Shown here one piece after another: positions 4,911 to 29,136 of a stretch of DNA of 29,136 nt (the stretch's first letter is position 1; each line of letters begins with the position of its first letter). The stretch spans positions 1-29,136 of the forward strand of contig JASHVB010000203.1 in assembly GCA_030039695.1 (NCBI GenBank), given 5' to 3'. The translations under genes were made by a program, and so were the position numbers. The notes under the pieces were generated by a model, which saw only the letters and a list, made by a program, of their open reading frames with translations, did no database searches and was not told the origin of the DNA. Origin of the DNA: Acetobacteraceae bacterium (GTDB taxonomy: Bacteria; Pseudomonadota; Alphaproteobacteria; Acetobacterales; Acetobacteraceae).

Positions 4911-6979
4911 GCAGTGCGCCATTGCTGTGGGTCCAAGACCTGACGGTGCGCTATGACAGCGACGCTGCGCAGAGTGCCGCGGTGCGCGATATTTCATTTC
5001 AGTTGCAGCCCGGCGAGGCGCTGGGCATCGTCGGTGAATCGGGCTCCGGTAAGAGCAGCATTGCCGGCGCGATTTTGGATTTCCTTGGCCCGGCCGCTCG
5101 GATCATGGGAAACATCCTGTTCGAGGGGCAGGACCTCACGCAGTTGTCGCATGCGCAGCGCCGCGCTGTGTTGGGCCGCCGGATCGGTGCGGTGTTCCAG
5201 GACCCGTTCACCGCGCTCAATCCGGCGCTGCGCGTCGGCCGGCAGATTGCCGAACCAATGGTGCAGCATCTCGGCATGAAGCAGGCCGAAGCGCTGCGCC
5301 GCGCCGTCTCCCTGCTCGCGGAAATGGGCATCCAACATCCGGACGACGTGGCGCGGGCGTTCCCCCACCAGCTCAGCGGAGGGATGAAGCAGCGGGCGCT
5401 GATAGCTGCGGCGCTGGCCTGCGAGCCGCCGCTCTTGATCCTGGACGAGCCCACGACCGCGCTCGACGTCACCGTTGAAGCACAGATCCTGCGCCTGCTC
5501 GCACGCCTGCGCCAACAGAAACGTGTCAGCCTGCTGTTCATCAGCCACAATCTCGGCGTTGTTCGGCGGCTCTGCGACCGCGTCGCGGTGATGTACGCGA
5601 GCCAGTTCGTCGAAGTCGGCACGGTGCGCGCGGTGCTGGAAAAACCCGCTCACCCGTATAGCAAGGGCCTGCTGGCGTCGCGGCCACCGTTGGAGGCAGC
5701 GCGGTCGCGCGGCGCTCGCCTGCGGGCGATCCTGGGACAGATGCCCAGCGGGCCCCGCCCGGAGGCAGGCTGCGTGTTCGAGCCGCGCTGCCCATTTGCC
5801 GAGCCGCGCTGCACCGAGGGACCGCAGCCGCTGGCTGCGGCCTCGGCCGGCCATCAGGCACGATGCTGGCAGGCGAACGCGCTGGGAGCCTGGCCAGGCC
5901 ACGCCGTAGAGGCGGTCCCGCAGCCGCCATTCCGTCGCGGCGATGCCCTGGTCAACGTCACGAAGCTTCGCAAGACCTTTGTGACGCGGGGCGGTCTGGC
6001 GGCCTGGCGCCTCTCTCTCGCGCGGCCCGGTCCGGTGCTGCGCTATCGACCCGTGCAGACCGCGGCCGTGGATGGCGTGTCGCTGTCGATTTCGCCCGGC
6101 GAGGTGCTGGGTCTGGTCGGCGAAAGCGGCTGCGGCAAGTCGACCATGGGCCGCCTGGTGTTGCAGTTGCTGCACCAGAGCGACGGCAGCGTCGAGTTCG
6201 ACGGCGCCGATGTTGGCCGCTTGCCACGCCCGGAACTGCGCGGCTTTCGCAAGCAGGCGCAGATCGTGTTCCAGAACGTCGGCTCGTCGCTCAATCCGAG
6301 ATTGTCGGTCGGAGAGGCGCTGGAACGGCCGCTGGCATTGTTCGGCCTGGCGAAGCGGGGCGCACGGCGCCAGCGCGTTGAGGAACTGCTGGAGATGGTG
6401 CGGCTACCGCCGTCTTATCGGACGCGCTATCCGCACCAGTTGAGCGGCGGCGAACGCCAGCGCGTCGCGATTGCGCGGGCGCTGGCTACCGAACCACGCT
6501 TCATCGTTTGCGACGAGCCAGTGTCCGCGCTCGATGTTTCAGTGCAAGCGGTGATTGTCAATCTGCTGGCCGACCTGCGTGATCAGTTCGGCCTGGCGTA
6601 TTTGTTCATCTCGCATGACCTGTCGATCGTGGCCCAGGTCTCCGATCGGATCGCCGTGATGTATCGCGGCCGGATCTGCGAAACCGGCACGCCGGCCGAT
6701 CTGCTGACCGCGCCGCGTCATCCTTACACACGCATACTGCTGGACGCGGTGGCCGACCAGCCGGACCCAGAACCAGACGCGCCGACGCGGCCAGCCGCCG
6801 CGGGCCCCGGCTGCGTGTTCGCTGCACGTTGCCCGCACTGTCTGCCATCGGTGTGCGAGACAGTGACGCCCGAGCTTCGTCCCGTCAGCGAGTCCCATCA
6901 GGTCGCCTGCCATGTGGACTGCAGAGCCCCCACCGTCGTGGCCGGGTCTGATCCGGCCTTGAGGAAGGTATCGAGCTAG
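4907..6979 (+). CDS. Fused double ABC ATPase, DppD-DppF type
   Basis: A 690-residue protein with two complete ATP-binding domains, doing the job of separate DppD and DppF subunits. Domain 1: Walker A GESGSGKSS (43-51), Q-loop VFQDP (96-100), signature LSGGMKQR (156-163), Walker B LLILDEP (176-182), H-loop FISH (211-214). Domain 2: Walker A GESGCGKST (405-413), signature LSGGERQR (512-519), Walker B FIVCDEP (532-538), H-loop FISH (567-570). Both halves end in an oligo_HPY-like tail with clustered cysteines (289, 295, 302, 320 and 636, 642, 645, 650, 668), a region that can carry an iron-sulfur cluster in some relatives. I chose the ATG at 4907 because it overlaps the permease stop (ATGA); an open extension upstream is antisense-free but lies wholly within the permease gene. 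Confidence 0.93.
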   Translation: MSSAPLLWVQDLTVRYDSDAAQSAAVRDISFQLQPGEALGIVGESGSGKSSIAGAILDFLGPAARIMGNILFEGQDLTQLSHAQRRAVLGRRIGAVFQDPFTALNPALRVGRQIAEPMVQHLGMKQAEALRRAVSLLAEMGIQHPDDVARAFPHQLSGGMKQRALIAAALACEPPLLILDEPTTALDVTVEAQILRLLARLRQQKRVSLLFISHNLGVVRRLCDRVAVMYASQFVEVGTVRAVLEKPAHPYSKGLLASRPPLEAARSRGARLRAILGQMPSGPRPEAGCVFEPRCPFAEPRCTEGPQPLAAASAGHQARCWQANALGAWPGHAVEAVPQPPFRRGDALVNVTKLRKTFVTRGGLAAWRLSLARPGPVLRYRPVQTAAVDGVSLSISPGEVLGLVGESGCGKSTMGRLVLQLLHQSDGSVEFDGADVGRLPRPELRGFRKQAQIVFQNVGSSLNPRLSVGEALERPLALFGLAKRGARRQRVEELLEMVRLPPSYRTRYPHQLSGGERQRVAIARALATEPRFIVCDEPVSALDVSVQAVIVNLLADLRDQFGLAYLFISHDLSIVAQVSDRIAVMYRGRICETGTPADLLTAPRHPYTRILLDAVADQPDPEPDAPTRPAAAGPGCVFAARCPHCLPSVCETVTPELRPVSESHQVACHVDCRAPTVVAGSDPALRKVSS

Positions 6980-7832
6980 CACTTCGCTGCCGCAAACACC
7001 CGTATCAAGCTGAAGAGGTCGTACCCCGTATTATGAACGACTTGGGGCATGACGGCCATTTTGGCCATTGACCGGTATTTGCGACGTGCTGATTGACAGT
7101 CAGCGCGACACCCTATGGAAGTGCAGACCGACGAGGCGCGAGAGCAGTATCGCGGGAAAGAGCTGGCCGATTATAGTTTCGAGATCGGCGAGGCTGGGTG
7201 CGAATGGCGATTGCCAACTCGTCCGGCCGTCGCCGATCGTCGCCAGCGTCGTGAAGCTGATGGATCAGGTCGACGAAATGCGGCCGGCCGCCTTCGAGCG
7301 GAATTTTCAGCGCATCGTGATCCACGATCGCAATTCCAGCATAAGCGAGCGAGAGCAGCAACGCGACGTTGAGATCGATGAACACGGCGCCAGCAATGCG
7401 ATGATCAATGACACCGCCCGGTCGGACCACCGCCCGCGCCATCGCGATCACCACCGGCTTCCAGGCGTAGCAGACCCCGGGGCGGCATACGCCCGGATTC
7501 TCGGTTCACTCGATTGGCCAAGACGGTCCGCCGTCGAGCCTTGGCCGGCCAAGCTACCCCACCACCCAATGCAGCTTCTTGCTCCCGGCGGGGAGGGTAG
7601 CCCTCTCGCTTTCAAGTCTCACAATTGCTGCAAATTTGAGACCCATTCGGCGCACATTCTCGACTTTCATGCAGCCGCACGTGAGATTCGCGACGAGTCG
7701 CGGACTTCCATTCAGCGTGACAGTTGTCGCACAATTGAGAAATCCAAGCCAGGATTTCTCCAAACGGCAGTACCGCCGCTGATTCCCACTTTTCGCCATC
7801 CAAACGGCCACGTGACAACCGGCTCTGTCACT
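6980..7832. other. Gene-poor region after the importer operon, about 850 bp
   Basis: No intact gene is convincing. A weak inverted repeat (GGCCA-TTT-TGGCC, 7054-7066) lies about 75 bp after the ATPase stop but has no T-run. On the minus strand a frame at about 7113-7454 contains a plausible hydrophobic stretch (FIDLNVALLLSLAYAGIAIV), and another at 7554-7811 has several Cys residues. I recognise neither, and both look like eroded or non-coding DNA. Confidence 0.4.
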
Positions 7833-8085
7833 TCAGCGAACTGGCTTCGAGAGACCTTTCTTGAATGCGGCTGCGAAGTCCTCCGATATCAGGAAGCGCA
7901 GAGCCTCGCGTAGGGACTCCGACGCGGCGCGACCGAAGGCAGCCTCGAAATCACGCTGCGCGTTCGCCCAGAGGGCATCGGTTTGCGCGAGTTTTCGGCG
8001 ACCGCACCGCGTAAGGGTTATTAGCCGATTGCGCCGATCCTCCGGATCGGGGCCCACGGTCGGCCGCGTACTTGCAGCGAGATTA
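7833..8085 (-). pseudogene. MarR-family regulator, C-terminal fragment only
   Basis: The minus-strand frame encodes DPEDRRNRLITLTRCGRRKL followed by a long amphipathic helix with a W-x-x-A-Q-x-x-F-x-x-A-F-G pattern. This is the wing (D-x-x-D-R-R-x-R-L-I-x-L-T-x-x-G) and C-terminal dimerisation helix of MarR proteins. About 80 residues with the N-terminal dimer helices and recognition helix are absent: the frame runs into the 3' end of the acyl-CoA-dehydrogenase-like gene and meets a stop. A GTG at 8057 could start a 74-residue peptide, but it would lack DNA-binding ability. The join suggests a deletion that removed the regulator's front half; it may once have controlled the neighbouring genes. 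Confidence 0.7.
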
Positions 8086-8088
8086 TGG

Positions 8089-9294
8089 TTACCGTCGCCG
8101 TTCCGCCTCTAGCGTCGCCCGACCGATCATGCCCAACGCCAGATCATCCTGCGGCGGCTGGAACAAGCCGCCGCGCGCATCGCGAAAATAGCGCTCCAGC
8201 GGCAGGTCGCGAGTCATACTGAACCCGCCCGCGACGCGCAGCGCGGTTTCCGTCACGCGACACGCGGCGTTGGTACAGAGATACTTCGCCGCCGCGATCG
8301 ATGTGGCGAGTTCCGCCGGCGATGCGCTGTGTTCGACCCAGGCACGCGCGGTATCGTGCAGTACGGTGCGCGCGGCGCGCAGACTCAGGTCTATCTCACC
8401 GATCCACTGCTGAATATGCGACTGCCCGGCGATCGAAGCGCCGAGCGCGACCGGCACACGATTGTTCGCATAGTGACACGCCGCGTCGCATGCGGCCTGG
8501 CCCACGCCGAGGTACACTGCCGCAAGCGGCAGGTTCCACCCGGACGTACCGGGGCGCTTGCGCTCGCCGCCGATGATCACGCGTTCGACGACGCGCGCAT
8601 CGGGCACGAATACGTTATCGTAGTTGACCGCGTAGTTGCCGCAGCTCCGGAGCCCGAGAGCGCCGTTCCAGGTGTCCTCGATTGTCAGGCCGGGAGAACT
8701 GCCGTCAACTATCGCGCTGACCAGCTCACCATGGGGGGCGGTGTCGCTTGCCGGCAGCATCACGGCGGTGGCGAGGAAGCGCAGAACAGGAGCGCCCGTT
8801 ACAAAGATCTTGCGGCCGCTGATGCGCCAGCCGCCGTCGGCGCGAGTGCCGGACATGGAAGGCAAGCCTCCACGGGAAATGCTGCCAAGTCCGGCTTCTG
8901 TCACGCAGTTGTTGATCGCGCCGCCGTCACGGGCCAGCGTCGTGCAGATGTCAGCCAGCACGTCACGCGGCCACGCCTGAGAGTCCATGACGCGCCCCAG
9001 CAGGGACAGGTTCATGCCCGTGACCAGCGCAGTGGAGGCATCGCCGCGGGCAAGGATTTCCTGCGCGAGTACCATGTCGAACACGTCGGCGCCCCGCCCA
9101 CCGAATTCGCACGGCAACGCGAGGCGCAGATAGCCGCTCGCGTGCAAATCCTGGTAATTCTCCAGGGGAAACCGTGATTGCGCGTCGTTTTCCGCGGCTC
9201 GTTCCTGCAATTCCGCGGCGAGTTTTCCGGCGAGTTGCATGATCTGTTGTTGCCGCGCTGTGGGATTGCGCAGCCCCGGCATGTGTGGGGTCAT
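8089..9294 (-). CDS. Acyl-CoA dehydrogenase-like flavoprotein
   Basis: A 401-residue protein of the acyl-CoA dehydrogenase fold. The N-terminal helical domain (LPCEFGGRGAD near residue 80) is followed by the flavin-binding beta domain (NNCVTEAGLGS..., then GRKIFVTGAP) and a C-terminal helical domain (ALRVAGGFSMTRDLPLERYF). The end of the chain reads ERYFRDARGGLFQPPQDD rather than the Y-E-G-T stretch that carries the catalytic glutamate in many true dehydrogenases. This is closer to DszC/SfnB-like flavin oxygenases, so a monooxygenase or desaturase role is possible. The start ATG overlaps the stop of the upstream AhpD-like gene (ATGA). It is the last intact gene of a three-gene operon next to a peptide-type importer. 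Confidence 0.85.
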   Translation of the reverse strand: MTPHMPGLRNPTARQQQIMQLAGKLAAELQERAAENDAQSRFPLENYQDLHASGYLRLALPCEFGGRGADVFDMVLAQEILARGDASTALVTGMNLSLLGRVMDSQAWPRDVLADICTTLARDGGAINNCVTEAGLGSISRGGLPSMSGTRADGGWRISGRKIFVTGAPVLRFLATAVMLPASDTAPHGELVSAIVDGSSPGLTIEDTWNGALGLRSCGNYAVNYDNVFVPDARVVERVIIGGERKRPGTSGWNLPLAAVYLGVGQAACDAACHYANNRVPVALGASIAGQSHIQQWIGEIDLSLRAARTVLHDTARAWVEHSASPAELATSIAAAKYLCTNAACRVTETALRVAGGFSMTRDLPLERYFRDARGGLFQPPQDDLALGMIGRATLEAERRR

Positions 9295-18337: not shown

Positions 18338-19873
18338 TTAGAACAGCCGCCGGAATACGTTTGCGAGCACTCGTACCGGCAGCAGGAACCCACCGCGGGA
18401 CCGATCGGGGGGATTGCAATGCCAGTATCCTGCTGAATCTCGACTCATGGACGAGCCGGTAATGCCACGACATTCGTTGATGCTAACGATGCAAGACTGG
18501 CCTGCACCAAGGCGTACTCCAGCTGCACACTTGCCGTCTGGTGTCCTCTTCATGATGAGAAATCTTACGACCTTTGGTTCATTGCGTGCTTCTCGGGAAA
18601 GCGTCCGTGTCGGGGTATGAGACGGCAACCGTACGGAAAGCGTGGCAAGCGTCGGAGCCCGTTTGATCGCCGGCACGGCGAGATCCGCAATGCGCCGACG
18701 CGCAAGTGTGGCGAAGCGCCCGTTTGGAAATTGCTTGAGATAAGTCCGGTAATCCTCGGCGTTCCCGCTGTTGAGTATAGACTCCCAGAACAGCGCGTCC
18801 GTATCCAGGTTGGGTGGGGCCGGCCGGATTGTCACCGGTGCATTGAATACGACCGGCCCGGCAAAATAGAATTCACCGGAAATGGGCGATGAGGCGACCC
18901 AAGGCTGTTGCTCCCCGCCGGTTGCCTCCTGAACCCCCAAGCCCACCTGATTGAAGACGCGGAAAATATCCAGTCCCGGTTGCTCCATCGCCTTGGCAAG
19001 GGCAGCGGTGAAAGGGCTGTTGGTCCCGCTGCCGTCCTGGGCAACGCTACCAGGCTGCGTCGCATAGGAGATCACCGTGCCTACCGGCGCCGTCATCTGC
19101 GCCAGCCCGCCACCTGTGGCGCGCAGGCCACGTGAGCCAAATGGATTGTTACGGCAGGCATCAAGAATCATGATGTTCAAGCGTGTGCCGGCATCCCGCA
19201 TCTGACGCAGGATAAGATCGGCGCTCATCATTTGAAAATCCAAGTCTTGCAGCCGTGTCGGATTGGCGTCGACCGGGACGAGCCAGTTCACACCTTGAAC
19301 CTGCAGGCCGTGGCCTGAGTAATAGAACAGCGCCACGTCTGCTCCTATGATCGCTCGGCCAAACTCCCGCACCGATCTGTCGAATGCCGATTTCTGCAAA
19401 TTGAGCTGCGGGCCCCCGCCGACGATGGAAAAGCCAAGACGTGCCAGCGTCTGTGCCATGAGCCGGGCATCGTTCCTCGGATTGTCCAAACGAGCAACGC
19501 TTTGGTAATCCGCGTTACCGACGACCAGCGCGACCCGTCGCCCTCCGTCAGCCGCAGCGATCTGTGCTGTTGCCAGCCACAGCATCGAGACGACAAGCAA
19601 GCGGCAGACCGCTACAAGCACTGACCGGCCGACCAGAGGCGTTCGATGGTTGCACGGCAACGCGAACTCAAAACACGAGCTCATACGTATATTCCGGTCG
19701 CGCAGTGACCGTCTCGTGTCATTCAGCACCCTGCCGAAACCCGAACCATCGGATCCGGCTGACGGTGGGTCATTCAAAACAGCTAAAGCTGGACCAGGCA
19801 ATAAAGCCGCCGCAAGGGTGACAGCACAACAAATCAACGCGTTCATCACGATCGAGGTAAAGGTTCTGATCAT
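18338..19873 (-). CDS. Exported caspase-like protein (peptidase C14) with two hydrophobic leaders
   Basis: A 511-residue protein with a caspase p20-like domain from about residue 112 (RRVALVVGNADYQ). The catalytic dyad is visible: H188 in YYSGHG and C240 in LDACRNNPF. After the domain comes a short segment typical of bacterial caspase-like proteins (LFWESILNSGNAEDYRTYLK) and a Cys-containing tail (CAAGVRLGAGQSCIVSINEC). Start: ATG 19873 has GGAGG at 6 nt and encodes a signal peptide (residues 1-31, ending PALA). A second in-frame ATG at 19684 (residue 64) begins another leader-like hydrophobic stretch (about 84-106). Known bacterial relatives act in stress responses, cell death or regulated proteolysis; its role here is unknown. 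No effector gene is adjacent, only divergent lipoproteins. Confidence 0.85.
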   Translation of the reverse strand: MIRTFTSIVMNALICCAVTLAAALLPGPALAVLNDPPSAGSDGSGFGRVLNDTRRSLRDRNIRMSSCFEFALPCNHRTPLVGRSVLVAVCRLLVVSMLWLATAQIAAADGGRRVALVVGNADYQSVARLDNPRNDARLMAQTLARLGFSIVGGGPQLNLQKSAFDRSVREFGRAIIGADVALFYYSGHGLQVQGVNWLVPVDANPTRLQDLDFQMMSADLILRQMRDAGTRLNIMILDACRNNPFGSRGLRATGGGLAQMTAPVGTVISYATQPGSVAQDGSGTNSPFTAALAKAMEQPGLDIFRVFNQVGLGVQEATGGEQQPWVASSPISGEFYFAGPVVFNAPVTIRPAPPNLDTDALFWESILNSGNAEDYRTYLKQFPNGRFATLARRRIADLAVPAIKRAPTLATLSVRLPSHTPTRTLSREARNEPKVVRFLIMKRTPDGKCAAGVRLGAGQSCIVSINECRGITGSSMSRDSAGYWHCNPPDRSRGGFLLPVRVLANVFRRLF

Positions 19874-19884: not shown

Positions 19885-20135
19885 GGATGGAGTGGAGTTA
19901 ACCTCACCACTGTAATAATGGTGGGACTGCGTTCACTGAAATGCTTCACAGCAGGCGACACCAGGCAGGATTTCAGCGAGGTGCGCGGCAGGGTGATGCT
20001 AAGCTTTTGCCTGTGAGCTGGGTCACACAATCATGCTCCCGTCCGGTCCGGAAACAGACGGTTGACTTTATCCGTTAGTCGGTCATGTCGACATGCCATT
20101 GCGGCACCATGCGTCACATGCCGCCCGGATAGGCC
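19885..20135. promoter_or_regulatory. Divergent intergenic region with a hairpin and a palindrome
   Basis: This stretch lies between the caspase-like gene (minus) and the first lipoprotein (plus). An imperfect hairpin lies at about 19901-19924 (CACCA ... TGGTG with flanking pairs). A perfect 12-bp palindrome CATGTCGACATG occurs at 20084-20095, with TTGACT at 20062-20067 as a possible -35 box upstream. These could be operators or promoters for either gene. Confidence 0.35.
20084..20095. promoter_or_regulatory. 12-bp perfect palindrome, possible operator
   Basis: CATGTCGACATG reads the same on both strands. It lies about 90 bp before the first lipoprotein start and 16 bp after a TTGACT box. 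It could be a binding site for a dimeric regulator; chance occurrence cannot be excluded. Confidence 0.3.
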
Positions 20136-20185
20136 ACGCGCCGGGGTCTTGCCAAACGCTGCAGAGAGCCAAAGTAAGTATCGAC

Positions 20186-20407
20186 ATGAAGAAGGTCTGT
20201 TCACGTGTGTGCCGCTGGTTGCCGTTGTTCGCGTTGCTGACCGCCGCGGGCGGCACGCTGACGTCGTGCGACACTCCAGTCGGCGTGTCGCCTGCCCTGA
20301 AGGGAACCTATTGGGAGCACGCGCTCGTCACCAACCCGGACGGCGGCGGCCCCATGGTGGTGCGCTGGGGACCGCCAGAGCCCTACGTCCCTCCGGGACC
20401 TTTATAA
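20186..20407 (+). CDS. Small lipoprotein, tandem copy 1
   Basis: A 73-residue predicted lipoprotein. Basic N-terminus (MKKVCSRVCRW), hydrophobic core (LPLFALLTAAGG) and lipobox LTSC place the lipidated cysteine at residue 28; Asp at +2 (CDTPVG) would favour inner-membrane retention if Lol rules of enterics apply. The mature part is about 45 residues: GVSPALKGTYWEHALVTNP, a glycine stretch and VVRWGPPEPY. I recognise no family. The start is fixed by alignment with copy 2. In the region it is divergent from the caspase-like gene. Weak ribosome site. Confidence 0.75.
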   Translation: MKKVCSRVCRWLPLFALLTAAGGTLTSCDTPVGVSPALKGTYWEHALVTNPDGGGPMVVRWGPPEPYVPPGPL

Positions 20408-20512: not shown

Positions 20513-20737
20513 ATGAAGAAAATCTGTTCGCGCCTGGGCCGCCGGTTGCCGTGGTTCGCGTTGTTGACCGCCGCGGGCGGCCTGCTCGCGTCGTGCGACA
20601 CCCCGGTCGGCGTGTCGCCTGCCCAGCAAGGGACATATTGGGAGCACGCGCTGGTCACCAACCCGGCCGGCGGCGGCCCACAGGTGGTGCGCTGGGGGCC
20701 GCCGCAGAACTACAACCCTGGGGCACAAGACCAGTGA
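20513..20737 (+). CDS. Small lipoprotein, tandem copy 2
   Basis: A 74-residue paralogue of the previous gene; 53 of the first 64 residues are identical, including the lipobox region (LLASC, Cys28), the CDTPVGVSPA start of the mature part and GTYWEHALVTNP. GGGAG lies about 10 nt before the ATG, a better site than in copy 1. The two C-termini differ (YVPPGPL against YNPGAQDQ). Conservation of the protein over the DNA, with Trp, Tyr and Gly-rich parts kept, argues that both copies are or were translated. Function unknown. Confidence 0.8.
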   Translation: MKKICSRLGRRLPWFALLTAAGGLLASCDTPVGVSPAQQGTYWEHALVTNPAGGGPQVVRWGPPQNYNPGAQDQ

Positions 20738-21811: not shown

Positions 21812-22540
21812 CTATCGCGATCTACGGCAAAGCAAAAGAAGGTCATCAACGTGATCCGACGCCATGACTCCATTATGAAGCCTCAGCGGCTTTTGGCGCC
21901 TAATGGCCAGCGGTAGTAGAAGGTTGTTGTAGCACCAGAACCCTTGAACAGGGTGTCGCGCCAAGAGGTCCATGGCGACGCTCGCCAATGATGACGAGCG
22001 AGGACGCATACCAAATGGGGCGCTCCGCTCGATCACAAAACCATACCGCTGCAGCTGCTCGGCCAATAGTATCGGATCGTAGCGCCTGTAGTGCCCGACG
22101 ATATCATCGAAACGGCTCCACCGTGAGGGATGCAATGGCACAGAAAGCAGCATAGTGCTTCCTGGCTTGGCTAACCGGGCAAGTTCAGAGAAACATGCGT
22201 CGTCGTCCTCGACATGCTCGACAATATCAAACGCGCACATCAAATCAAAAGTGACATCTGGAAATGGCATAGCGGTGACAGGTGCAAGTGCGACGTAGCC
22301 ACCCCTGTCCCGCAATTGCGAGAGCGCCTCTGCGCTGATGTCGACAAAGAACGTGTCGGTAATCGGCAATCGCGGACGTAGCCCAGGCCCAATCTCCAGC
22401 CTGCGTCCCCCCTCGCCAAGAAGGGCCTGGACGACTGGCCAGGTATTGAAGCACTCAGGGCCTACCAGTCGGCAGTTACGCCACAGCGCGTCAAAGAACC
22501 TGGTATTCACCGTCTGGAGGTCCGGCGCTTGCCCCGTCAC
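21812..22540 (-). CDS. Class I SAM-dependent methyltransferase
   Basis: A 242-residue Rossmann-type methyltransferase. Motif I is RRLEIGPGLRP (46-56); an acidic residue after the second strand (FFVDIS) would bind the ribose, followed by PFPDVTFDLMCAFDIVEHVE (motifs III-IV, with the frequent D-x-V-E-H) and LLSVPLHPSRWSRFDD. This pattern fits Methyltransf_11 proteins acting on small molecules, lipids or sugars. The start is GTG 22540, without a clear ribosome site; the next Val codons downstream are alternatives. It lies beside the remains of an aryl-polyene-like cluster but on the opposite strand, so membership is uncertain. Confidence 0.85.
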   Translation of the reverse strand: MTGQAPDLQTVNTRFFDALWRNCRLVGPECFNTWPVVQALLGEGGRRLEIGPGLRPRLPITDTFFVDISAEALSQLRDRGGYVALAPVTAMPFPDVTFDLMCAFDIVEHVEDDDACFSELARLAKPGSTMLLSVPLHPSRWSRFDDIVGHYRRYDPILLAEQLQRYGFVIERSAPFGMRPRSSSLASVAMDLLARHPVQGFWCYNNLLLPLAIRRQKPLRLHNGVMASDHVDDLLLLCRRSR

Positions 22541-22927
22541 CGTTGCGAGATTGCGTGCTGGCCGGTTGATAGTCGTTTACTCCCTAAGCCCGGAGAAGCG
22601 GTTGGCCGCACGGTATGGCAGGCCCTGCGGCTGGTGCCAACCTGACAGTGAATGCGTTGCGGTTCTTTGCGTCCTGCTATCGCCTGTGCGTGCTGACAAA
22701 GCGGCGCGAATCAGGGACCTGCCGGCCGTTGCCGTACCGCCAAACCTGAAGACCGCTCGCGGAACGAAGCTGCGATACCGCCGCCGGTTTGGGATTCTCC
22801 GTGGCCCATCCTGCCCAAATCGTCACCATGGTGCCAGCGACGCACATGTGCGCTTTCGAGACCACGGCGCTGCTGCCGCTGCGAGTTCCGCCTTCAACGT
22901 GGTGTGGTTGAGGCTGGTGTCCCCATG
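22541..22927. other. Intergenic region, probably eroded coding DNA
   Basis: No intact gene. It precedes the C-terminal piece of an acyl-AMP ligase on the plus strand and may be the decayed remainder of that gene, but I could not follow a ligase motif in any frame here. Confidence 0.4.
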
Positions 22928-23056
22928 ATGTCGCCGCCCGCCTCTGGTCCATCGCCGGGCCGCATGGTGCTCGTCGATCGTCTGCCGCGCCGTGAGACGG
23001 GCAAGCCGACGGAAGCCGCGATCGGGGCGTTGCGAAGAGATCGGCCGGACCTATAG
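22928..23056 (+). pseudogene. Acyl-AMP ligase, C-terminal fragment
   Basis: The plus-strand frame ending at TAG 23054 reads VLVDRLPRRETGKPTEAAIG near its end. This is the C-terminal A10-like motif of AMP-dependent acyl or aryl synthetases (x-x-V-D-x-L-P-R-x-x-T-G-K), including the catalytic lysine. Nothing upstream in this frame resembles the roughly 400-residue N-terminal domain, so only the tail survives. In aryl-polyene clusters a stand-alone AMP ligase often lies near the LolA-like and MMPL genes, which is exactly what follows here. Confidence 0.6.
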
Positions 23057-23093
23057 TGCCGCGCTCGGCGGCGCGGTCGCACCGGTACGCCCA

Positions 23094-23762
23094 ATGATGC
23101 ATTCCATGAAAGCGCCACACATCTTCACCACCGGCCTCGATCATCCCGCCCTGCCCGCTGGGACGCTCACCTCGAATCACCACCCGCGCCGCACTCTGCT
23201 CCGCTGCGCCATGCTGTGCGCCCTGTGGCTGCCGGCACGGGCAGCAGACGGCGCTCCGTCAGCAATTGATGAGCTGATGCAGGCGCTCGCCCGCGTGACC
23301 GCGCGTCGAGCGAACTTCACGGAGATCAAGTCGATTGCCGCCTTGTCCGAACCCATCAGGACCAGCGGGATGCTGATCTATCGGCGCCCCGACTACCTGG
23401 CGAAGATCACGCGCTCCCCGCATTCAGAGCAATTGGTGGTCGATGGCAACCAGCTCAGCCTGGCCGAGGGGACCCAGGCACCACACATCATCGCCCTGGA
23501 CAGTCATCCGCACCTGCACGCGCTCGTGGACGCGATCCGCGGTACGCTGTCCGGCAATCTCGCCTTGCTGCGCCAGTGGTACGAGGTAACCATGACGGGT
23601 AGCATCGCGGCCTGGCGCCTGGGCCTGACCCCAATCGATGCCGGGCCTGCATCACTGATCCGGTTCATCGCCATCGAAGGCAGAGGGACGGCGCTGCGCG
23701 CCGTGCAAACGGTCGAGGCAAATGGCGACGAGAGCCGCATGGCGATCAATCCCGAGCCGTGA
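23094..23762 (+). CDS. LolA-like outer-membrane carrier protein (aryl-polyene-cluster type)
   Basis: A 222-residue exported protein. A signal-like core (LLRCAMLCALWLPARAADG) ends around residue 49. The mature part has the LolA-type pattern: LMQALARVTARRANFTEIKS, then LIYRRPDYLAKIT and VDGNQLSLAEG, strands of an open barrel that binds acyl chains. It is predicted to ferry a hydrophobic product through the periplasm. The start is uncertain: ATGs at 23094, 23097 and 23106 are in frame, none with a clear ribosome site, and each leaves a long polar stretch before the leader. The stop overlaps the MMPL start (GTGA), a pairing known from aryl-polyene gene clusters. Confidence 0.75.
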   Translation: MMHSMKAPHIFTTGLDHPALPAGTLTSNHHPRRTLLRCAMLCALWLPARAADGAPSAIDELMQALARVTARRANFTEIKSIAALSEPIRTSGMLIYRRPDYLAKITRSPHSEQLVVDGNQLSLAEGTQAPHIIALDSHPHLHALVDAIRGTLSGNLALLRQWYEVTMTGSIAAWRLGLTPIDAGPASLIRFIAIEGRGTALRAVQTVEANGDESRMAINPEP

Positions 23763-26098
23763 CCGCATCGCGCCGCGCTAGCGGCCTGCCCATCCTCCTC
23801 GCGTTTGCCGGCGCGGTACTAGCCGCCGTCCTGGTGCTCTCTCGGGTCACCATCCGCACCGACATGACCGAGTTCCTGCCGCCCGGGCGCACGCTTGCCG
23901 CGCGACTGATGGTGCAGCAGTTCCGTTCCGGTGCTGGTACGAGCATAATTATGCTCGGCATCGAGGGCGCGCCGGCCGCAACGCTTGCCCGTGTCAGCCA
24001 CAGCATGACGACGGCGCTGGACCAGTCGCATCTCTTCTTGTTCGTCAACGACGGCGACGCATCCCTCTTCGGCAGTGAAACTGCGCAGATTTTGTTCCGG
24101 TACCGCTACTTCCTATCCCCCGCAGTCACGCCGCGGGTTTTCTCGACGGCGGGGCTGCACGCGGACATGATTCGACTGCTGCACGGACTGGAATCCTCAG
24201 CCGCGCCGCTGGTCTCGCAATTCGGCCTGGCGGACCCACCAGGCGCCTTCCTCGCCCTGTTGCAGCAGTGGATCGGCGCCAGCCAGGTACGCTCGGTGGA
24301 CGGCGTCTGGTTCGCGCCTCACCGTGATCGCGCGCTGATCGTTCTGCGCACGCGCGCCAGCAACATGGACCTGGAAAGTCAGCAGCGTGCCCAGGCGGCA
24401 ATCACGGCGGCCTTCGCCCACGCCGATCCTGGCAGCGCACGCTTGCTCGCGGCTGGCCCCGCGGTGTTTGCGCGCCAGGCCGCCGATACCATGCGCGCTG
24501 ACGTCACCATGCTCTCAGTGGCGTCGACGGTATTGCTGTCCGCGCTGCTGTTCTGGCGTTTCCGCTCCGTCTGGGTGCTGCTGCTGGTCGCCGTGCCCGT
24601 CACGCTCGGCATCGCCGCGGCTGCCCTCGCCGTGCAGGTCTTGTTCGGCTTCGTTCATGGCGTGGCGATCGGGTTTGGCGTCACCATGCTCGGTGTCTCG
24701 CTGGACTACCCGGTGCTGTTGGTAGGCCATCGCAAGCTAGCCGAGCCGGCGTCGGCCACACTGCGGCGCATCGGCCAGGCGTTCTACCTCGCGGTATGCT
24801 CCGCCGCTCTTGGCCTCACCGGCATGCTGTTCACCGGTGTCCCTGGCCTGTCCCAGCTTGGCTGTTTCTCGGTAGTTGGCCTGGTGGTGGCCGCAGCCGT
24901 GACCCGCTGGCTCCTGCCCCAGCTGATCGTGGCCGCTGATCTGGCCCCTGTCTCCGCTGGCGATCCCGCGCACCTCCTGCGGGTGGAACACCTCCGTGCC
25001 TGGCGCGGCTGGGCGGCGGCGCTGTGCGTCGCGGCGGTTGCCGGTCTCGCCTTCGCGGGCGGCCCGCGGTGGCAGACCAACCTTGCCGCGCTGAGTCCGA
25101 CCCCGCCCGCCGCCATGAAACTCGACGCCGCGTTGCGCCGAGACCTGGGTGCGCCCGACACGGTTCTGCTGGGCCTCGTCGAAGGGCGATCGGCCCAGGA
25201 GGTGCTGCAACAGGAGGAGCGACTGTTGCCAATCGTCGATTCGCTCGTCAGCCGCCGCGTCCTCGCTGGCGCCGATATGGCCGCCCGATACCTGCCCAGC
25301 GCCGCCACGCAACGCGCGCGCCGCGCCATTCTGCCGGATCCCGCCGCGCTGTCGGTCAGTGTCGCCCAGGCACAAGCCGGCCTGCCGTTCCGCCCGGACG
25401 CCTTTCAGCCATTCATCAACGCTGTCGCGGCCAGTCGCACACTGCGGCCGCTACTGCCCGCCGACATCGACGCACCCCTGTTCCGCGCCCGTCTCGATCC
25501 GCTGCTGTTTTTCAACGACGGTGTGTACTATGGCCTGATCACTCCGACCGATCTCCGCGATCCGGCAGCGTTCGCCACGGCCTTGCGCCAGAACGACGCC
25601 CATTACGTTGACATGATCAGCGAAATGAATCGCCTCGTCGCTGATTACACTGGCACCGCATGGCGCTGGTTCGCCATCGGCGGCGCCGGCGCTCTGGCGG
25701 TGATTGCCGCCGGCCTGCGTGCGCCTCGCCGCGTCTTGGCGGTAGCCGCCGCCGTCCTTGCCGCGTTGCTGGTAACCGTCGCAATCCTGACCGCGATCGG
25801 CACCAAGCTGTCGCTGATCCAGGTTGTCTCGCTGCAATTGGTCGCCGGCGTGGGGCTGGACTACGCGCTGTTCTTTGCCCGTCGCCAACTCGACCAGGAG
25901 GAACGGGCCCGCACATTACGCACGTTGGTCACGTGCAATGCCATGACAGTGCTCACATTCGGTGTGCTGGCCTTGTGTCGCACGCCTCTGCTCCGGCAGA
26001 TCGGCCTTACTGTGGTGATCGGCGCTGTCCTGGCGCTGGTGTTCGCCTTCGTGTTCGCCGGCGTCGTGCCGCGCGACAGCCAGGAGGAGTACGCCTGA
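23759..26098 (+). CDS. MMPL/RND-family exporter
   Basis: A 779-residue inner-membrane exporter with two repeats, each one helix, a large periplasmic domain and five more helices. Helix 1 is about residues 9-29. The first helix cluster (about 247-390) contains GVSLDYPVLLVGH, where the Asp is the usual proton-relay residue. The second cluster (about 630-770) contains VAGVGLDYALFFARR, the matching position. Length (about 780) and coupling to a LolA-like gene match exporters of aryl-polyene clusters; the hopanoid transporter HpnN is longer. It starts at GTG 23759 overlapping the previous stop. It looks intact though biosynthetic genes around it are broken. Confidence 0.88.
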   Translation: MTASRRASGLPILLAFAGAVLAAVLVLSRVTIRTDMTEFLPPGRTLAARLMVQQFRSGAGTSIIMLGIEGAPAATLARVSHSMTTALDQSHLFLFVNDGDASLFGSETAQILFRYRYFLSPAVTPRVFSTAGLHADMIRLLHGLESSAAPLVSQFGLADPPGAFLALLQQWIGASQVRSVDGVWFAPHRDRALIVLRTRASNMDLESQQRAQAAITAAFAHADPGSARLLAAGPAVFARQAADTMRADVTMLSVASTVLLSALLFWRFRSVWVLLLVAVPVTLGIAAAALAVQVLFGFVHGVAIGFGVTMLGVSLDYPVLLVGHRKLAEPASATLRRIGQAFYLAVCSAALGLTGMLFTGVPGLSQLGCFSVVGLVVAAAVTRWLLPQLIVAADLAPVSAGDPAHLLRVEHLRAWRGWAAALCVAAVAGLAFAGGPRWQTNLAALSPTPPAAMKLDAALRRDLGAPDTVLLGLVEGRSAQEVLQQEERLLPIVDSLVSRRVLAGADMAARYLPSAATQRARRAILPDPAALSVSVAQAQAGLPFRPDAFQPFINAVAASRTLRPLLPADIDAPLFRARLDPLLFFNDGVYYGLITPTDLRDPAAFATALRQNDAHYVDMISEMNRLVADYTGTAWRWFAIGGAGALAVIAAGLRAPRRVLAVAAAVLAALLVTVAILTAIGTKLSLIQVVSLQLVAGVGLDYALFFARRQLDQEERARTLRTLVTCNAMTVLTFGVLALCRTPLLRQIGLTVVIGAVLALVFAFVFAGVVPRDSQEEYA

Positions 26099-26338
26099 TC
26101 GCGACCGCCCGTCCTCCCACCGGCGCGGCCGCCTTCAACGCTATCGGCCGCGGCGCAGCACAGACGCTGGTAGCCTTGCACGATTGGCGCTGGACCGGCC
26201 GTGCGAATTCCGAGGTATCGCGACCGGCTACATCGGCGCGTGCCGGAGGAGGTCGCCGATCCGGCAGGGTTGTTGGTGTTGCCGCACGTCGCCTGCACCT
26301 CAGGCCGGACGATTCCGACCAACGGCGGGATGACCTGA
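26099..26338 (+). pseudogene. FabG-like ketoreductase, C-terminal fragment
   Basis: The frame ending at TGA 26336 reads RVPEEVADPAGLLVLPHVA then CTSGRTIPTNGGMT. This matches the last 35 residues of short-chain reductases such as FabG (P-E-E-V-A-x-x-x-x-x-L, then S/T-G-x-T-I-x-x-x-G-G-M). Upstream in the same frame only about 20 unrelated residues occur, and no Y-x-x-x-K or glycine-rich motif is found, so the gene is almost wholly lost. A FabG-like reductase downstream of the MMPL exporter is the usual order in aryl-polyene clusters. The recognisable part begins at about 26201. Confidence 0.55.
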
Positions 26339-26355
26339 CGCCTTTGCGAGTCCCG

Positions 26356-27189
26356 TTACATCCGAGCCGGCGGCGATTCCGCTTCGTGCCACCGCAGCCG
26401 GCAGCCGGTCAGGGAGCGCCAGAGCCCGATCGGGTCCATCCACATCCTGAGCAGCTTGCCCCCCACCATCAGCACGATACGGGTAATGTCCCTCACGGGC
26501 CGGAAGTGGCTGGCCCGCAGTCCGCTGCCATAGATCGCAGGTATGTCCACCGCGACGGTGTGCACGCCGATTCGTCCGGCCTCGACTAGCACCTCGCTTT
26601 CGAACGCGAAGCCGCTGGCCATGTCAGTGCGCAGCGCGACACGTCGCGCTATGTCCGCGGGGTAGACGCGAAAGCCGGACTGGCTGTCTTCGATCGGGTG
26701 GCGCGCCGCCCAGGATACCCAGAAATCAGCGACCCGGTTAGCAATGGCCCTGGCGCGCGGCGCGTCTGTTCCGGCGGCACGGCGGGAGCCGATGATGATC
26801 CGCCCGGGCCAGTCCCGGCAGCACGCGAGCAAGCGCGGCAGATCCTCGGGTTGGTGCTGGCCGTCGCCGTCTAGGGTGGCGATATGGTCCGCCCCGGCCG
26901 CGAGCGCGGCCCGTATGCCGTCGCGCAGGCTTGCCCCCTTTCCCTGGTTGATGTCATGGCGCAGCACCTGCGCGCCGGCCTCAGCCGCCAATCGTGCCGT
27001 CGCATCGCGCGAGCAGTCATCCACCACGAAGACCTGCGACACCTGGTTCAGCCGGTGGCAACGCCGGACCAAGGCCGCGATGGTGACCGCTTCCTCATAG
27101 GCAGGGATGATGACGGCAACCCGCGCCGCCGAGGCCCGGCTGCCCTGGTCGATCGGTTGCGTCATCGAGCCTGCCATGCTTCCGCTCAT
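26356..27189 (-). CDS. Family 2 glycosyltransferase
   Basis: A 277-residue GT-A-fold transferase. VAVIIPAYEEAVTIAALVRR (24-43) and VVDDCSRDAT (55-64) form the nucleotide-sugar site. D-x-D type metal binding is ATLDGDGQHQPEDL (104-117), followed by GSRRAAGTDAPRARAIANRV and SGFRVYP (dolichol-phosphate-mannose-synthase-like). No membrane helices are clear. ATG 27189 is used; ATGs at 27177 and 27165 are alternatives. It is convergent with the exporter-side genes. Glycosyltransferases of this type occur in aryl-polyene clusters, but the opposite strand leaves membership open. Confidence 0.85.
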   Translation of the reverse strand: MSGSMAGSMTQPIDQGSRASAARVAVIIPAYEEAVTIAALVRRCHRLNQVSQVFVVDDCSRDATARLAAEAGAQVLRHDINQGKGASLRDGIRAALAAGADHIATLDGDGQHQPEDLPRLLACCRDWPGRIIIGSRRAAGTDAPRARAIANRVADFWVSWAARHPIEDSQSGFRVYPADIARRVALRTDMASGFAFESEVLVEAGRIGVHTVAVDIPAIYGSGLRASHFRPVRDITRIVLMVGGKLLRMWMDPIGLWRSLTGCRLRWHEAESPPARM

Positions 27190-27588
27190 GGCACCGAGGG
27201 CCTGTCGTCCTCAAGTGCGTGCGGCGGAACATGTGGCGATGAAAAAGCCGGCCGTTGGCACAGAGGCCTGCGACGTGTTTTGGGGCAGCCCCGCATGCCC
27301 GGGCGGACGAGGCGGCCGAGTGGTGGCCGCTGGCGCGCCGCTCGGAGCGGCCGTTGCGCCGCGACATGGATCGGCCGGGCAGGCAGACCGACCGGATCAA
27401 CGACCCGATGGTTTGACGAATGCTGACGATGCCGAACAACATGTTGAGAATCCGCAACGGAATCGTATCGCTGTTCGCGGGCAATCTCGACGGGTGGATC
27501 GCACCGCACCGGCCATCGCTGGGGTTCAAGGGCGGTGACCATTCGGTGTCGCTGGTTGCAGGGCATGGCTTGCCTGTGGCTGAAACCG
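27190..27588. other. Intergenic region with short unassigned frames
   Basis: About 400 bp. A plus-strand frame ending at TGA 27413 has coding-like codon use (RADEAAEWWPLARRSERPLR). Another (27420-27596, 58 residues from ATG) contains LRIRNGIVSLFAGNLDGW. Neither belongs to a family I know. They may be remnants of cluster genes between the reductase fragment and the methyltransferase pseudogene. Confidence 0.35.
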
Positions 27589-28278
27589 CTAACTGATGCG
27601 TGCTGCCATGCGGCGGTTGCCGGTTAGTCGCGCGAAGTTGCGGCCGGTGACGTACCAGTGGATCAGCAGTGCCTCAAATACCATCAGCGGGATATGGCGC
27701 AGAGGAGGCCGCCGCGAACGCTCCGCCGCACAAGGAACGCGCCGGATCTCGAGTCCGGCCGCGAGGAGAGCGCTGCGCGCCAGATGAAACCGGCTCGTCA
27801 CCAGCACGGTCGGACCGGCATCGACGGCGAAACGCGCACGATAGAGCGTGAGGTTTTCCAGCGTGTGGCGGGACCGGTCTTCGAGCAGGATGGCGGCGGC
27901 AGGGACATTGTGGGCTTGCAAGAAGACCGCGCCGGCCGCGGCCTCGGACGGTTGGCCCGGCGTCGTCCTGCCGCCCAGGATGACGATCTGGGCCGCATCA
28001 TGTTTCGCGCGGAGGAGAGCGGCCCTCGCGAGCCTGGCACGATAATCGGGGCGAGGCTGACCAAGCCCGTCAAGCCGCATCCCAAGCACCAGGATTCGCT
28101 GGACGCTTGGCGGATCGCACCCGGTGCGGCAGGCGATCCACAACACGTAAAAGAGGCTCAGCAGCAACGTGGTGCCACACGACAAAACGACGATCACGGT
28201 GGATAGAGCCAGCATGGCGAAGCCGTCGGCACCAATGACCACTGGTTCAAGTGGCGGTTGCGGGTTGGAGGATGTCAT
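27589..28278 (-). CDS. YdcF/DUF218-family membrane protein
   Basis: A 229-residue protein. An N-terminal membrane helix (about 20-50) precedes a DUF218 domain: RILVLGMRLDGLGQPRPDYR, QIVILGGRTTPGQPSEAA, ILLEDRSRHTLENL and VLVTSRFHLARSALL. These are the standard motifs of this family, including the E-D-x-S-x-x-T-x-E-N block. Relatives include ElyC, which acts on envelope carrier-lipid metabolism, and SanA-like proteins. I prefer ATG 28278 (AGGA at 9 nt); a GTG at 28296 would add six residues. Flanked by broken cluster genes on the other strand. Confidence 0.85.
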   Translation of the reverse strand: MTSSNPQPPLEPVVIGADGFAMLALSTVIVVLSCGTTLLLSLFYVLWIACRTGCDPPSVQRILVLGMRLDGLGQPRPDYRARLARAALLRAKHDAAQIVILGGRTTPGQPSEAAAGAVFLQAHNVPAAAILLEDRSRHTLENLTLYRARFAVDAGPTVLVTSRFHLARSALLAAGLEIRRVPCAAERSRRPPLRHIPLMVFEALLIHWYVTGRNFARLTGNRRMAARIS

Positions 28279-28410
28279 GCCGGCTGATCCTGACACTGCC
28301 GGCGGCCTTTACGCGACTCCCGCTGCGGATTGGACAGGGAAGCCTGGCGTGGAGGGCCGGGGCCATCGCGCCCGGACGGTTGCGAATTCGCGCGTGCTCG
28401 CGCGGCCGGG

Positions 28411-28770
28411 CGTTATGGCGGCTGAAGCCGCTTTGTGCGCCGCCATGTCCGTTCCGAGCTCGGGCATGATTCGGTGCATCGCGACGTGCTGCGTCTGGCC
28501 GCGGCGGAGTCTTTTAACGCTGCGGTGGATATTGGTTGAGGGCGAGGCCAGCTGGCCGTTGCGCTGTTGCAGGCTCGCCTTTCCGGATCGGTGCTGGGTG
28601 TTGATTGTCAGGCCGTGCATCTCGCACAAGCCGAGTAGCAAGCGGTTGGTCTGGCATATCGATCAAGGCTGGTGGATTTGACGGATAGTCTCGAACCTCC
28701 GGTGGCCGACACGATACTGGCCGTGGTCGTGCTGTATCGGCTCGACGACGTCGTGCCGGGCGATGGGTAA
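28411..28770 (+). pseudogene. SAM methyltransferase broken by two in-frame stops and a frameshift
   Basis: The plus strand reads RALWRLKPL at 28410-28436. A one-base shift near 28432 then leads into FVRRHVRSELGHDSVHRDVL, AAVDIG, a TGA at 28537, GRGQLAVALLQARLSGSVLG, VDCQAVHLAQAE, a TAG at 28636, QAVGLAYRSRLVDLTDSLEP, ADTILAVVVLYRL and a final TAA at 28768. The TGA stands exactly where the cysteine of the motif I sequence D-[IV]-G-C-G-x-G-Q belongs (TGT/TGC to TGA). The order of motif I, an acidic strand end (LGVD) and ADT-hydrophobic-L-x-x-L fits a class I methyltransferase like those in aryl-polyene clusters. Clear decay, though sequencing error should be excluded for each lesion. Confidence 0.7.
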
Positions 28771-28872
28771 ATCCCTTGCGCGTGGCGCGAATCGCTGGCG
28801 TGCTGCGGTCAGGGGTCTACGATATCACCCTGACGCCATGCTGGCGCGATACGCCAAGTTCCAATGTACTGC

Positions 28873-29136
28873 TCATTGCCCGCCGACACCCGTTGCCGCA
28901 GAGCAATTGTCACAGGCTTGCTGGCGCAATGCCTGAAGCAGAGCATCGATGCTCTCACCATGATGATCTAGGAACGAGGCGTAGTCCGCGCGGATGGTGA
29001 TGCGCAGGCTGGTTCCCTCGGCGATGACATCGATGATCCGTGGATTGGCCGCATCGGTATTGACAACCCAGGTCACCTTGAACGGCGGCATACCGGGGCG
29101 CTGGATGACGGTCGGCACGTAAACGCTGTCCTCGCG
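28873..29136 (-). CDS. MlaC/Ttg2D/HpnM-type periplasmic protein, C-terminal 87 residues (partial)
   Basis: A minus-strand frame entering at the right edge and ending at a stop at 28873. It carries the C-terminal pattern of MlaC-type phospholipid-binding proteins: PFKVTWVVNTDAANPRIIDV, EGTSLRITIRADYASFL and GESIDALLQALRQQ (strand with D-V-I-x-E-G-x-S-L-x-x-x-x-R-x-x-[FY], then the final helix). These periplasmic carriers serve Mla lipid transport; HpnM relatives sit in hopanoid clusters. The last residues (ACDNCSAATGVGGQ) carry two extra cysteines. The start and the neighbouring genes lie beyond the window. Confidence 0.75.
   Translation of the reverse strand, partial: REDSVYVPTVIQRPGMPPFKVTWVVNTDAANPRIIDVIAEGTSLRITIRADYASFLDHHGESIDALLQALRQQACDNCSAATGVGGQ

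What the first reader, a model, noticed from the sequence alone, without database searches (positions are those of the whole stretch)
22928..28770. Wreck of an aryl-polyene-type cluster that kept its export pair
A LolA-like gene and an MMPL exporter are intact and overlap (GTGA). Around them lie only the C-terminus of an acyl-AMP ligase, the C-terminus of a FabG-like reductase and a methyltransferase with two stops and a frameshift. All five types belong together in aryl-polyene biosynthesis. Ketosynthases, dehydratases and acyl carriers are absent. Either the exporter pair is kept for another lipid or it is next to decay.
Basis: partly seen in the sequence, partly recalled or inferred. Interest (0 to 1): 0.7.

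Follow-up and report, generated by a model that had tools for sequence, protein, structure and literature searches.

The report
Pigment-gene wreck that kept its exporter
A bacterium of the vinegar-bacteria family lost the genes that make an aryl-polyene membrane pigment, but its lipid exporter and carrier, and two neighbouring envelope genes, stayed intact and appear to have been under selection since, so they probably now move some other lipid.

Summary
The window is collinear with intact aryl-polyene (xanthomonadin-type) clusters of Acetobacteraceae. Deletions, stops and frameshifts removed or gutted every polyene-making gene found there; LolA, MMPL, GT2 and DUF218 are whole. One deletion fused about 17 codons of the ApeI dehydratase to LolA. 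Two other metagenomic LolA proteins (82-83% identical) share that fusion, so it is not an assembly fault. The remnants evolve faster than their intact counterparts (74 window-only changes against 21, p=4e-8); the whole genes do not (85 against 104, p=0.19). So the exporter pair was most likely kept by selection after the pathway died, not merely next to decay. What it carries now is inferred: probably another envelope lipid, less likely a polyene made elsewhere in the genome. No whole genome is held for the window, so the second cannot be excluded. Among 397 family genomes drawn, 120 of the 124 with this MMPL also have the ketosynthase, so the uncoupling is unusual.

The parts
22717..22962 (+). 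AMP ligase (ApeH type) remnant, middle part, two in-frame stops; an internal deletion of about 190 aa follows
   Evidence: tblastn with L001 AMP ligase aa 157-238, 51%, E=3e-22; frame-tolerant alignment
22955..23056 (+). AMP ligase remnant, C-terminus to its stop
   Evidence: L001 aa 432-460, 76%, E=8e-11; stop read
23106..23156 (+). ApeI dehydratase N-terminus (about 17 codons) that now lies inside the start of the LolA frame
   Evidence: window MKAPHIFTTGLDHPALP against L001 ApeI MALPHVFTVGTDHPSLP; same leader in P0242 and P0243, absent from P0244 and P0245
23094..23762 (+). LolA_3 periplasmic lipid-carrier gene, intact, with the ApeI-derived leader
   Evidence: PF19574 E=2.8e-24; AlphaFold2 pLDDT above 90 for 161 of 222 residues, leader (residues 1-50) below 50; best PDB matches are LolA structures
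23759..26098 (+). MMPL/RND exporter gene, intact, 779 aa, overlaps LolA by GTGA
   Evidence: PF03176 E=9.9e-12; 54-90% identical proteins in the 120 listed of 536; both DY pairs (D316-Y317, D701-Y702) invariant in 29 aligned proteins
26119..26237 (+). ketosynthase N-terminal remnant in two frames
   Evidence: L001 KS aa 7-30 and 34-47, 58-64%, E=2.6e-8
26243..26335 (+). FabG C-terminal remnant (last 30 aa and end)
   Evidence: L002 FabG aa 400-429, 47%, E=8e-7
26356..27189 (-). family-2 glycosyltransferase gene, intact
   Evidence: PF00535 E=2.2e-20; 67% to L002 and 75% to L115 orthologues
27182..27593 (+). FAD oxidoreductase (halogenase-like) remnant: N-terminal and C-terminal pieces round a deletion of about 300 aa, one stop, one frameshift
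   Evidence: L115 protein aa 351-462, 46%, E=2e-24; aa 19-57, E=8e-5; stop and frameshift
27589..28296 (-). DUF218 (YdcF/ElyC-like) gene, intact
   Evidence: PF02698 E=3.5e-20; 63% to L002, 73% to L115 over 142 columns
28396..28886 (+). methyltransferase remnant: three stops and a deletion of about 45 aa with a frame change
   Evidence: L002 MT, 49% over aa 14-131, E=2e-29; aa 179-221, E=7e-10; lesions
28873..29136 (-). MlaC gene, runs off the window end
   Evidence: 61% over 82 residues to L002 MlaC (PF05494)

Best explanation
Shown: this is an aryl-polyene (xanthomonadin-type) gene cluster in which deletions, stops and frameshifts destroyed the polyene-making enzymes, while the LolA carrier, the MMPL exporter, a GT2 and a DUF218 gene stayed whole and did not speed up as the remnants did. 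Inferred: the kept proteins still work as an envelope-lipid export line. GT2 decorates a lipid in the inner membrane, MMPL lifts it out using the proton gradient, LolA carries it across the periplasm to the outer membrane, and DUF218 and MlaC act in the same envelope process. The cargo is then a lipid without the aryl polyene, probably the glycolipid or phospholipid scaffold to which the polyene was once attached.
For: Collinearity with intact clusters. In the remnants 74 changes are unique to the window against 21 unique to L001/L115 over 288 columns (p=4e-8); in MMPL, mature LolA, GT2 and DUF218 it is 85 against 104 over 1323 columns (p=0.19); divergence at codon positions 1 and 2 is 0.28 in remnants and 0.17 in the whole genes. 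Six in-frame stops fall in the remnants and none in the 1513 codons of the four whole genes. The ApeI-LolA fusion is shared by P0242 and P0243, which group with the window (ultrafast bootstrap 96), with LolA whole in all three. Changes unique to one of the three avoid family-invariant sites, 3 of 183 against 23 of 300 (p=0.003), and the fused leader changes faster than the mature domain, 9 of 66 against 26 of 483 (p=0.03). Random placement of the five deletions spares all four whole genes in 3 of 194,300 draws. LolA models as a confident LolA fold. ApeL, ApeM and ApeN are proposed as the export route to the outer membrane in E. coli (PMC8253772, passages).
Against: The window's genome is not held, so polyene genes elsewhere cannot be excluded. 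DNA of the closest relatives (P0001, P0242, P0243) was not available, so no post-loss dN/dS was computed. Not every remnant piece is faster: the second ketosynthase piece shows 2 against 2 changes, and the methyltransferase could not be tested for want of a close intact copy. Full-length LolA leans the other way (22 against 11, p=0.08). GT2 and DUF218 may have duties of their own. LolA carries an extra leader whose effect on secretion is unknown. No cargo is known.
Confidence: 0.6

Rival explanations
1. The exporter pair still carries an aryl polyene, made by biosynthetic genes that now lie elsewhere in the same genome (a split or replaced cluster).
For: In some family members MMPL and the ketosynthase lie apart: in G063, G312 and G372 both are on contig 1 about 0.5-2.2 Mb from each other, and in G396 they are on different contigs.
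Against: Nine relatives searched have a single ketosynthase copy at E<=1e-60, beside MMPL. Here the local copies are broken rather than moved, and the ApeI-LolA deletion is shared by three lineages.
Confidence: 0.22
2. LolA and MMPL are useless leftovers that have simply not been hit yet.
For: Everything around them that made the polyene is broken; bacterial genomes tend to delete idle genes piecemeal (recalled). For LolA alone the neutral model is weak: 21% of 500 runs stay stop-free at 0.12 changes per site.
Against: Unequal fate of remnants and whole genes. Six stops in about 453 remnant codons would predict about 13 in the 1001 codons of LolA plus MMPL, where there are none. A substitution-only neutral model at 0.12 changes per site (the excess of remnants over whole genes at codon positions 1 and 2) leaves MMPL free of stops in 0.8% of 500 runs. 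The fusion is shared by lineages that kept LolA whole, although only whole proteins would appear in that search.
Confidence: 0.13
3. Assembly artefact or chimera of metagenomic reads.
For: No whole genome is held for the window.
Against: The same fusion leader occurs in proteins of two other assemblies from different sources (lgn, jgi); the lesions are of several kinds; order is collinear with L002 and L115.
Confidence: 0.03

Closest known systems
Aryl-polyene cluster of E. coli CFT073 (ape genes)
   Same: Same kinds of parts: AMP ligase ApeH, dehydratase ApeI, LolA-like ApeL, RND exporter ApeM, ketosynthases, reductase ApeQ (PMC8253772, passages read).
   Different: Here the synthesis genes are wrecks; the Acetobacteraceae version also has a FAD/halogenase-like gene, DUF218 and MlaC.
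Xanthomonadin-dialkylresorcinol (arc) clusters of Azoarcus BH72
   Same: arcV to arcP list ACP, a hypothetical gene, AMP ligase, dehydratase, acyltransferase, LolA and exporter in the same order, with a halogenase and glycosyltransferase in the set (PMC3949708, passages read).
   Different: Pigment is made there; the synthesis genes are gutted here.
Intact clusters of Acetobacteraceae (L002; L001 with L115)
   Same: Collinear gene for gene, L001 with L115 as far as DUF218 where the contig ends. A survey reports such clusters in 19 of 43 acidophilic and 28 of 96 acetous strains (PMC8776678, passages).
   Different: These keep the biosynthetic genes.
Orphaned AcpT of E. coli K-12
   Same: A part whose cognate gene set was lost in a rearrangement (title seen in the reference list of PMC8253772).
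   Different: That is a carrier-protein activating enzyme, not an exporter; the paper itself was not read.
HpnN hopanoid RND transporter (PDB 5khn, 6wu0)
   Same: The only solved-structure relatives of this MMPL by sequence at E<=0.001 (E=2e-7, 3e-5).
   Different: Distant, and its cargo is hopanoid (recalled); the window MMPL scores 63.7 bits against a cut-off of 751.85 for HpnN.

Membership tests
Working aryl-polyene biosynthetic cluster | intact ketosynthase, AMP ligase, ACP, dehydratase and FabG | tested here: not met
   Broken or not found in the window
Working aryl-polyene biosynthetic cluster | dedicated export genes LolA-like and MMPL | tested here: met
Remnant of an Acetobacteraceae aryl-polyene cluster | same gene order and strand as intact clusters, with remnants in the expected places | tested here: met
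   Eleven genes or remnants in L002 order; a ketosynthase in the locus in 75 of 80 fetched MMPL loci
LolA family | LolA fold (open beta-barrel carrier) | tested here: met
   PF19574 above cut-off; AlphaFold2 model; the 32 best PDB rows are entries of LolA or LolA complexes
Classical lipoprotein chaperone LolA (TIGR00547) | score above curated cut-off | tested here: not met
   29.3 bits against 112
Flexirubin LolA2 (NF053544) | score above curated cut-off | tested here: not met
   43.2 bits against 125; best NCBIfam match
MMPL/RND lipid exporters | MMPL domain and proton-relay DY pairs | tested here: met
   PF03176 above cut-off; D316-Y317 and D701-Y702 invariant; that these are relay residues is recalled from MmpL3 work
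MMPL/RND lipid exporters | transports a lipid | not testable with these tools
   needs an assay

The most novel reading that the evidence does not exclude
LolA, MMPL, GT2, DUF218 and MlaC form a stand-alone envelope-glycolipid export module, perhaps the older core onto which polyene synthesis was added, and it has outlived the loss of the polyene in a whole clade; the cargo is the polyene-free scaffold lipid.
Probability: 0.3. Interest if true: 0.65.

Novelty: new variant of a known kind. Interest (0 to 1): 0.5.

Why it matters
How aryl-polyene lipids leave the inner membrane, and what they are hung on, was still an open question in the E. coli work read here (PMC8253772, passages). A lineage that kept the exporter and carrier while losing the polyene enzymes is a natural deletion experiment: it suggests the pair has a use without the polyene and gives a concrete lipid to look for.

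Tried and rejected
A single-sequence scan of genome contigs with the MMPL found no relative; the alignment-based scan returned 80 loci. MMPL searches of the family, genus and order draws gave nothing nearer than 74% identity.

I first thought the closest relative P0001 (contig 7793) must lack ketosynthase or LolA, because neither list shows that contig length; rejected, because the lists show only cluster representatives. P0001, P0003 and P0009 stay unsettled.

Orphaning elsewhere in the family: comparing the two lists by eye, 120 of 124 MMPL genomes (E<=1e-50) have the ketosynthase (E<=1e-60). Of the other four, G019 and G076 are cut by contig ends (G019 shows part of a ketosynthase). In G139 the MMPL lies beside a pseudouridine synthase, with no LolA found in the 6 kb read. 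In G094 no ketosynthase follows within about 2 kb, where the contig ends. These genomes may be incomplete, so the last two are leads only. L077 also has a lone MMPL.

The frame-tolerant alignment adds many small deletions in the AMP-ligase N-terminus and carries the ketosynthase alignment on into the FabG stretch; I rely on pieces that tblastn also finds. One search also listed weak matches in the wrong places, such as dehydratase at 28298-28363 (E=1.5e-4); its reference frames include untranslated extensions, and I treat these as chance. Full-length LolA shows an excess in the window (22 against 11, p=0.08) and was left out of the intact total, which uses the mature part (13 against 9). The methyltransferase was left out of the remnant total, having no close intact copy. 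The layout used for deletion placement was approximate L002 coordinates.

Papers: the searches listed no paper whose title or shown abstract describes a polyene cluster that lost synthesis but kept export; only listings, abstract openings and passages were seen.

Full report
What is there. LolA (23094-23762) and MMPL (23759-26098) are whole and share GTGA. Around them lie pieces of an AMP ligase, a ketosynthase, FabG, a FAD oxidoreductase and a methyltransferase, each found by tblastn with intact proteins of relatives. Two further whole genes lie on the other strand, a GT2 and a DUF218 gene, and then MlaC at the window edge.

Where it comes from. The nearest MMPL proteins (54-90% identity in the 120 listed of 536) are Acetobacteraceae where a source names the organism (P0005, P0069, P0107). 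Eighty MMPL loci were kept of 114 found. A ketosynthase lies in 75 of 80 of them. Of the five without, L015 ends just after MMPL, L022, L027 and L038 have a reversed FabG after MMPL, and L077 has a lone MMPL. LolA is found in 76 of 80. L002 has the window's order: ACP, AMP ligase, ApeI, acyltransferase, LolA, MMPL, ketosynthase, KS-like, dehydratase, FabG, GT2(-), FAD, DUF218(-), methyltransferase, MlaC(-). The nearest intact genome, G001, carries this set as far as DUF218 on two contigs (L001, with MMPL 74% identical, and L115).

How it broke. Compared with L001, L115 and L002: an internal deletion in the AMP ligase; a deletion from about codon 17 of ApeI to about codon 3 of LolA, taking the acyltransferase; a deletion from about residue 48 of the ketosynthase to the last 30 residues of FabG, taking the KS-like gene and the dehydratase; a deletion of about 300 residues in the FAD gene; and one of about 45 residues in the methyltransferase. 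In-frame stops: two in the AMP ligase, one in the FAD gene, three in the methyltransferase. No ACP was found.

The fusion is shared. The window's LolA frame opens MMHSMKAPHIFTTGLDHPALPAG; L001 ApeI opens MALPHVFTVGTDHPSLPG. P0242 and P0243 carry the same leader; P0244 and P0245 start at MTSG as L001 does. The tree puts the three fused proteins together (ultrafast bootstrap 96). All three keep LolA whole, though broken copies would not have shown in that protein search. Changes unique to one of the three spare family-invariant sites (3 of 183 against 23 of 300, p=0.003), and the leader changes faster than the carrier domain (9 of 66 against 26 of 483, p=0.03).

Kept or lagging. With L002 as outgroup, remnants show 74 window-only changes against 21 in the relative over 288 columns; the four whole genes show 85 against 104 over 1323. 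By piece, the AMP-ligase middle (20 against 7), FabG (9 against 1) and FAD (35 against 10) carry most of the excess; the second ketosynthase piece shows none (2 against 2). Divergence at codon positions 1 and 2 is 0.28 in remnants and 0.17 in whole genes; at position 3 it is 0.50 and 0.46. MMPL tip lengths of the window and P0001 are about equal (0.060, 0.055), and the two differ at 8 of 281 family-invariant but 68 of 498 variable columns (p=2e-7); whether P0001 also lost the pathway is not known, so this speaks for constraint in general. Random placement of the deletions spares all four whole genes in 3 of 194,300 draws, on approximate coordinates. Ten open frames upstream in the window each match a Pfam family, so the decay may be local; the scan does not cover the whole window.

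How unusual. Of 397 family genomes searched, drawn from a larger group, 124 have this MMPL and 136 the ketosynthase; 120 of the 124 have both. The four exceptions are two contig-end cases and two unclear ones. MMPL need not lie beside the ketosynthase: G063, G312, G372 and G396 have them apart. Nine relatives with MMPL and ketosynthase side by side have one ketosynthase copy each at E<=1e-60.

What it does now. LolA models as a LolA fold, confident from about residue 57 on, with a disordered leader; its best PDB matches are LolA chains. MMPL keeps both DY pairs, and its only solved relatives by sequence at E<=0.001 are HpnN-type transporters. E. coli work proposes ApeM with ApeL and ApeN as the route that takes the polyene lipid to the outer membrane, on a lipid anchor attached by an acyltransferase and a glycosyl/acyltransferase (PMC8253772, passages). 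Survival of exporter, carrier and glycosyltransferase together suggests that the anchor half of the product, or another lipid of that kind, is still made and moved. This last step is inference.

Limits. No own genome, no DNA for the fusion-clade relatives, no dN/dS after the loss, no cargo.

Noticed in passing
window 18338-19873 (-): Caspase-domain (PF00656, E=4e-38) protein of 511 aa about 3 kb from the first remnant, with about 110 residues before the domain.
   Followed up: partly
window 20093-20407 and 20513-20737 (+): Two neighbouring copies of a small lipoprotein-like open frame (shared SCDTPVGVSPA and GTYWEHALVTNP), seen in the ORF list.
   Followed up: no
window 21812-22540 (-): Intact SAM methyltransferase (PF08241, E=1e-10) just upstream of the AMP-ligase remnant, where L001 and L002 have the ACP; not the cluster methyltransferase.
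   Followed up: partly
L022, L027, L038, L103, L104, L105, L108: A variant layout in which MMPL is followed by FabG on the opposite strand; for L103, L104, L105 and L108 the ketosynthase lies elsewhere in the same genome.
   Followed up: partly
L119 (G139), L118 (G094), L077: MMPL relatives with no polyene genes found beside them; in G139 and G094 no ketosynthase was found in the held genome either. Possible further orphan exporters.
   Followed up: partly
L120 (G076), 6691-8741: About 2 kb separate LolA from the MMPL match, where other loci have them touching.
   Followed up: no
L115:1883-2625 (+): The GT2 of the nearest intact relative reads in two frames: frameshift or sequencing error.
   Followed up: no
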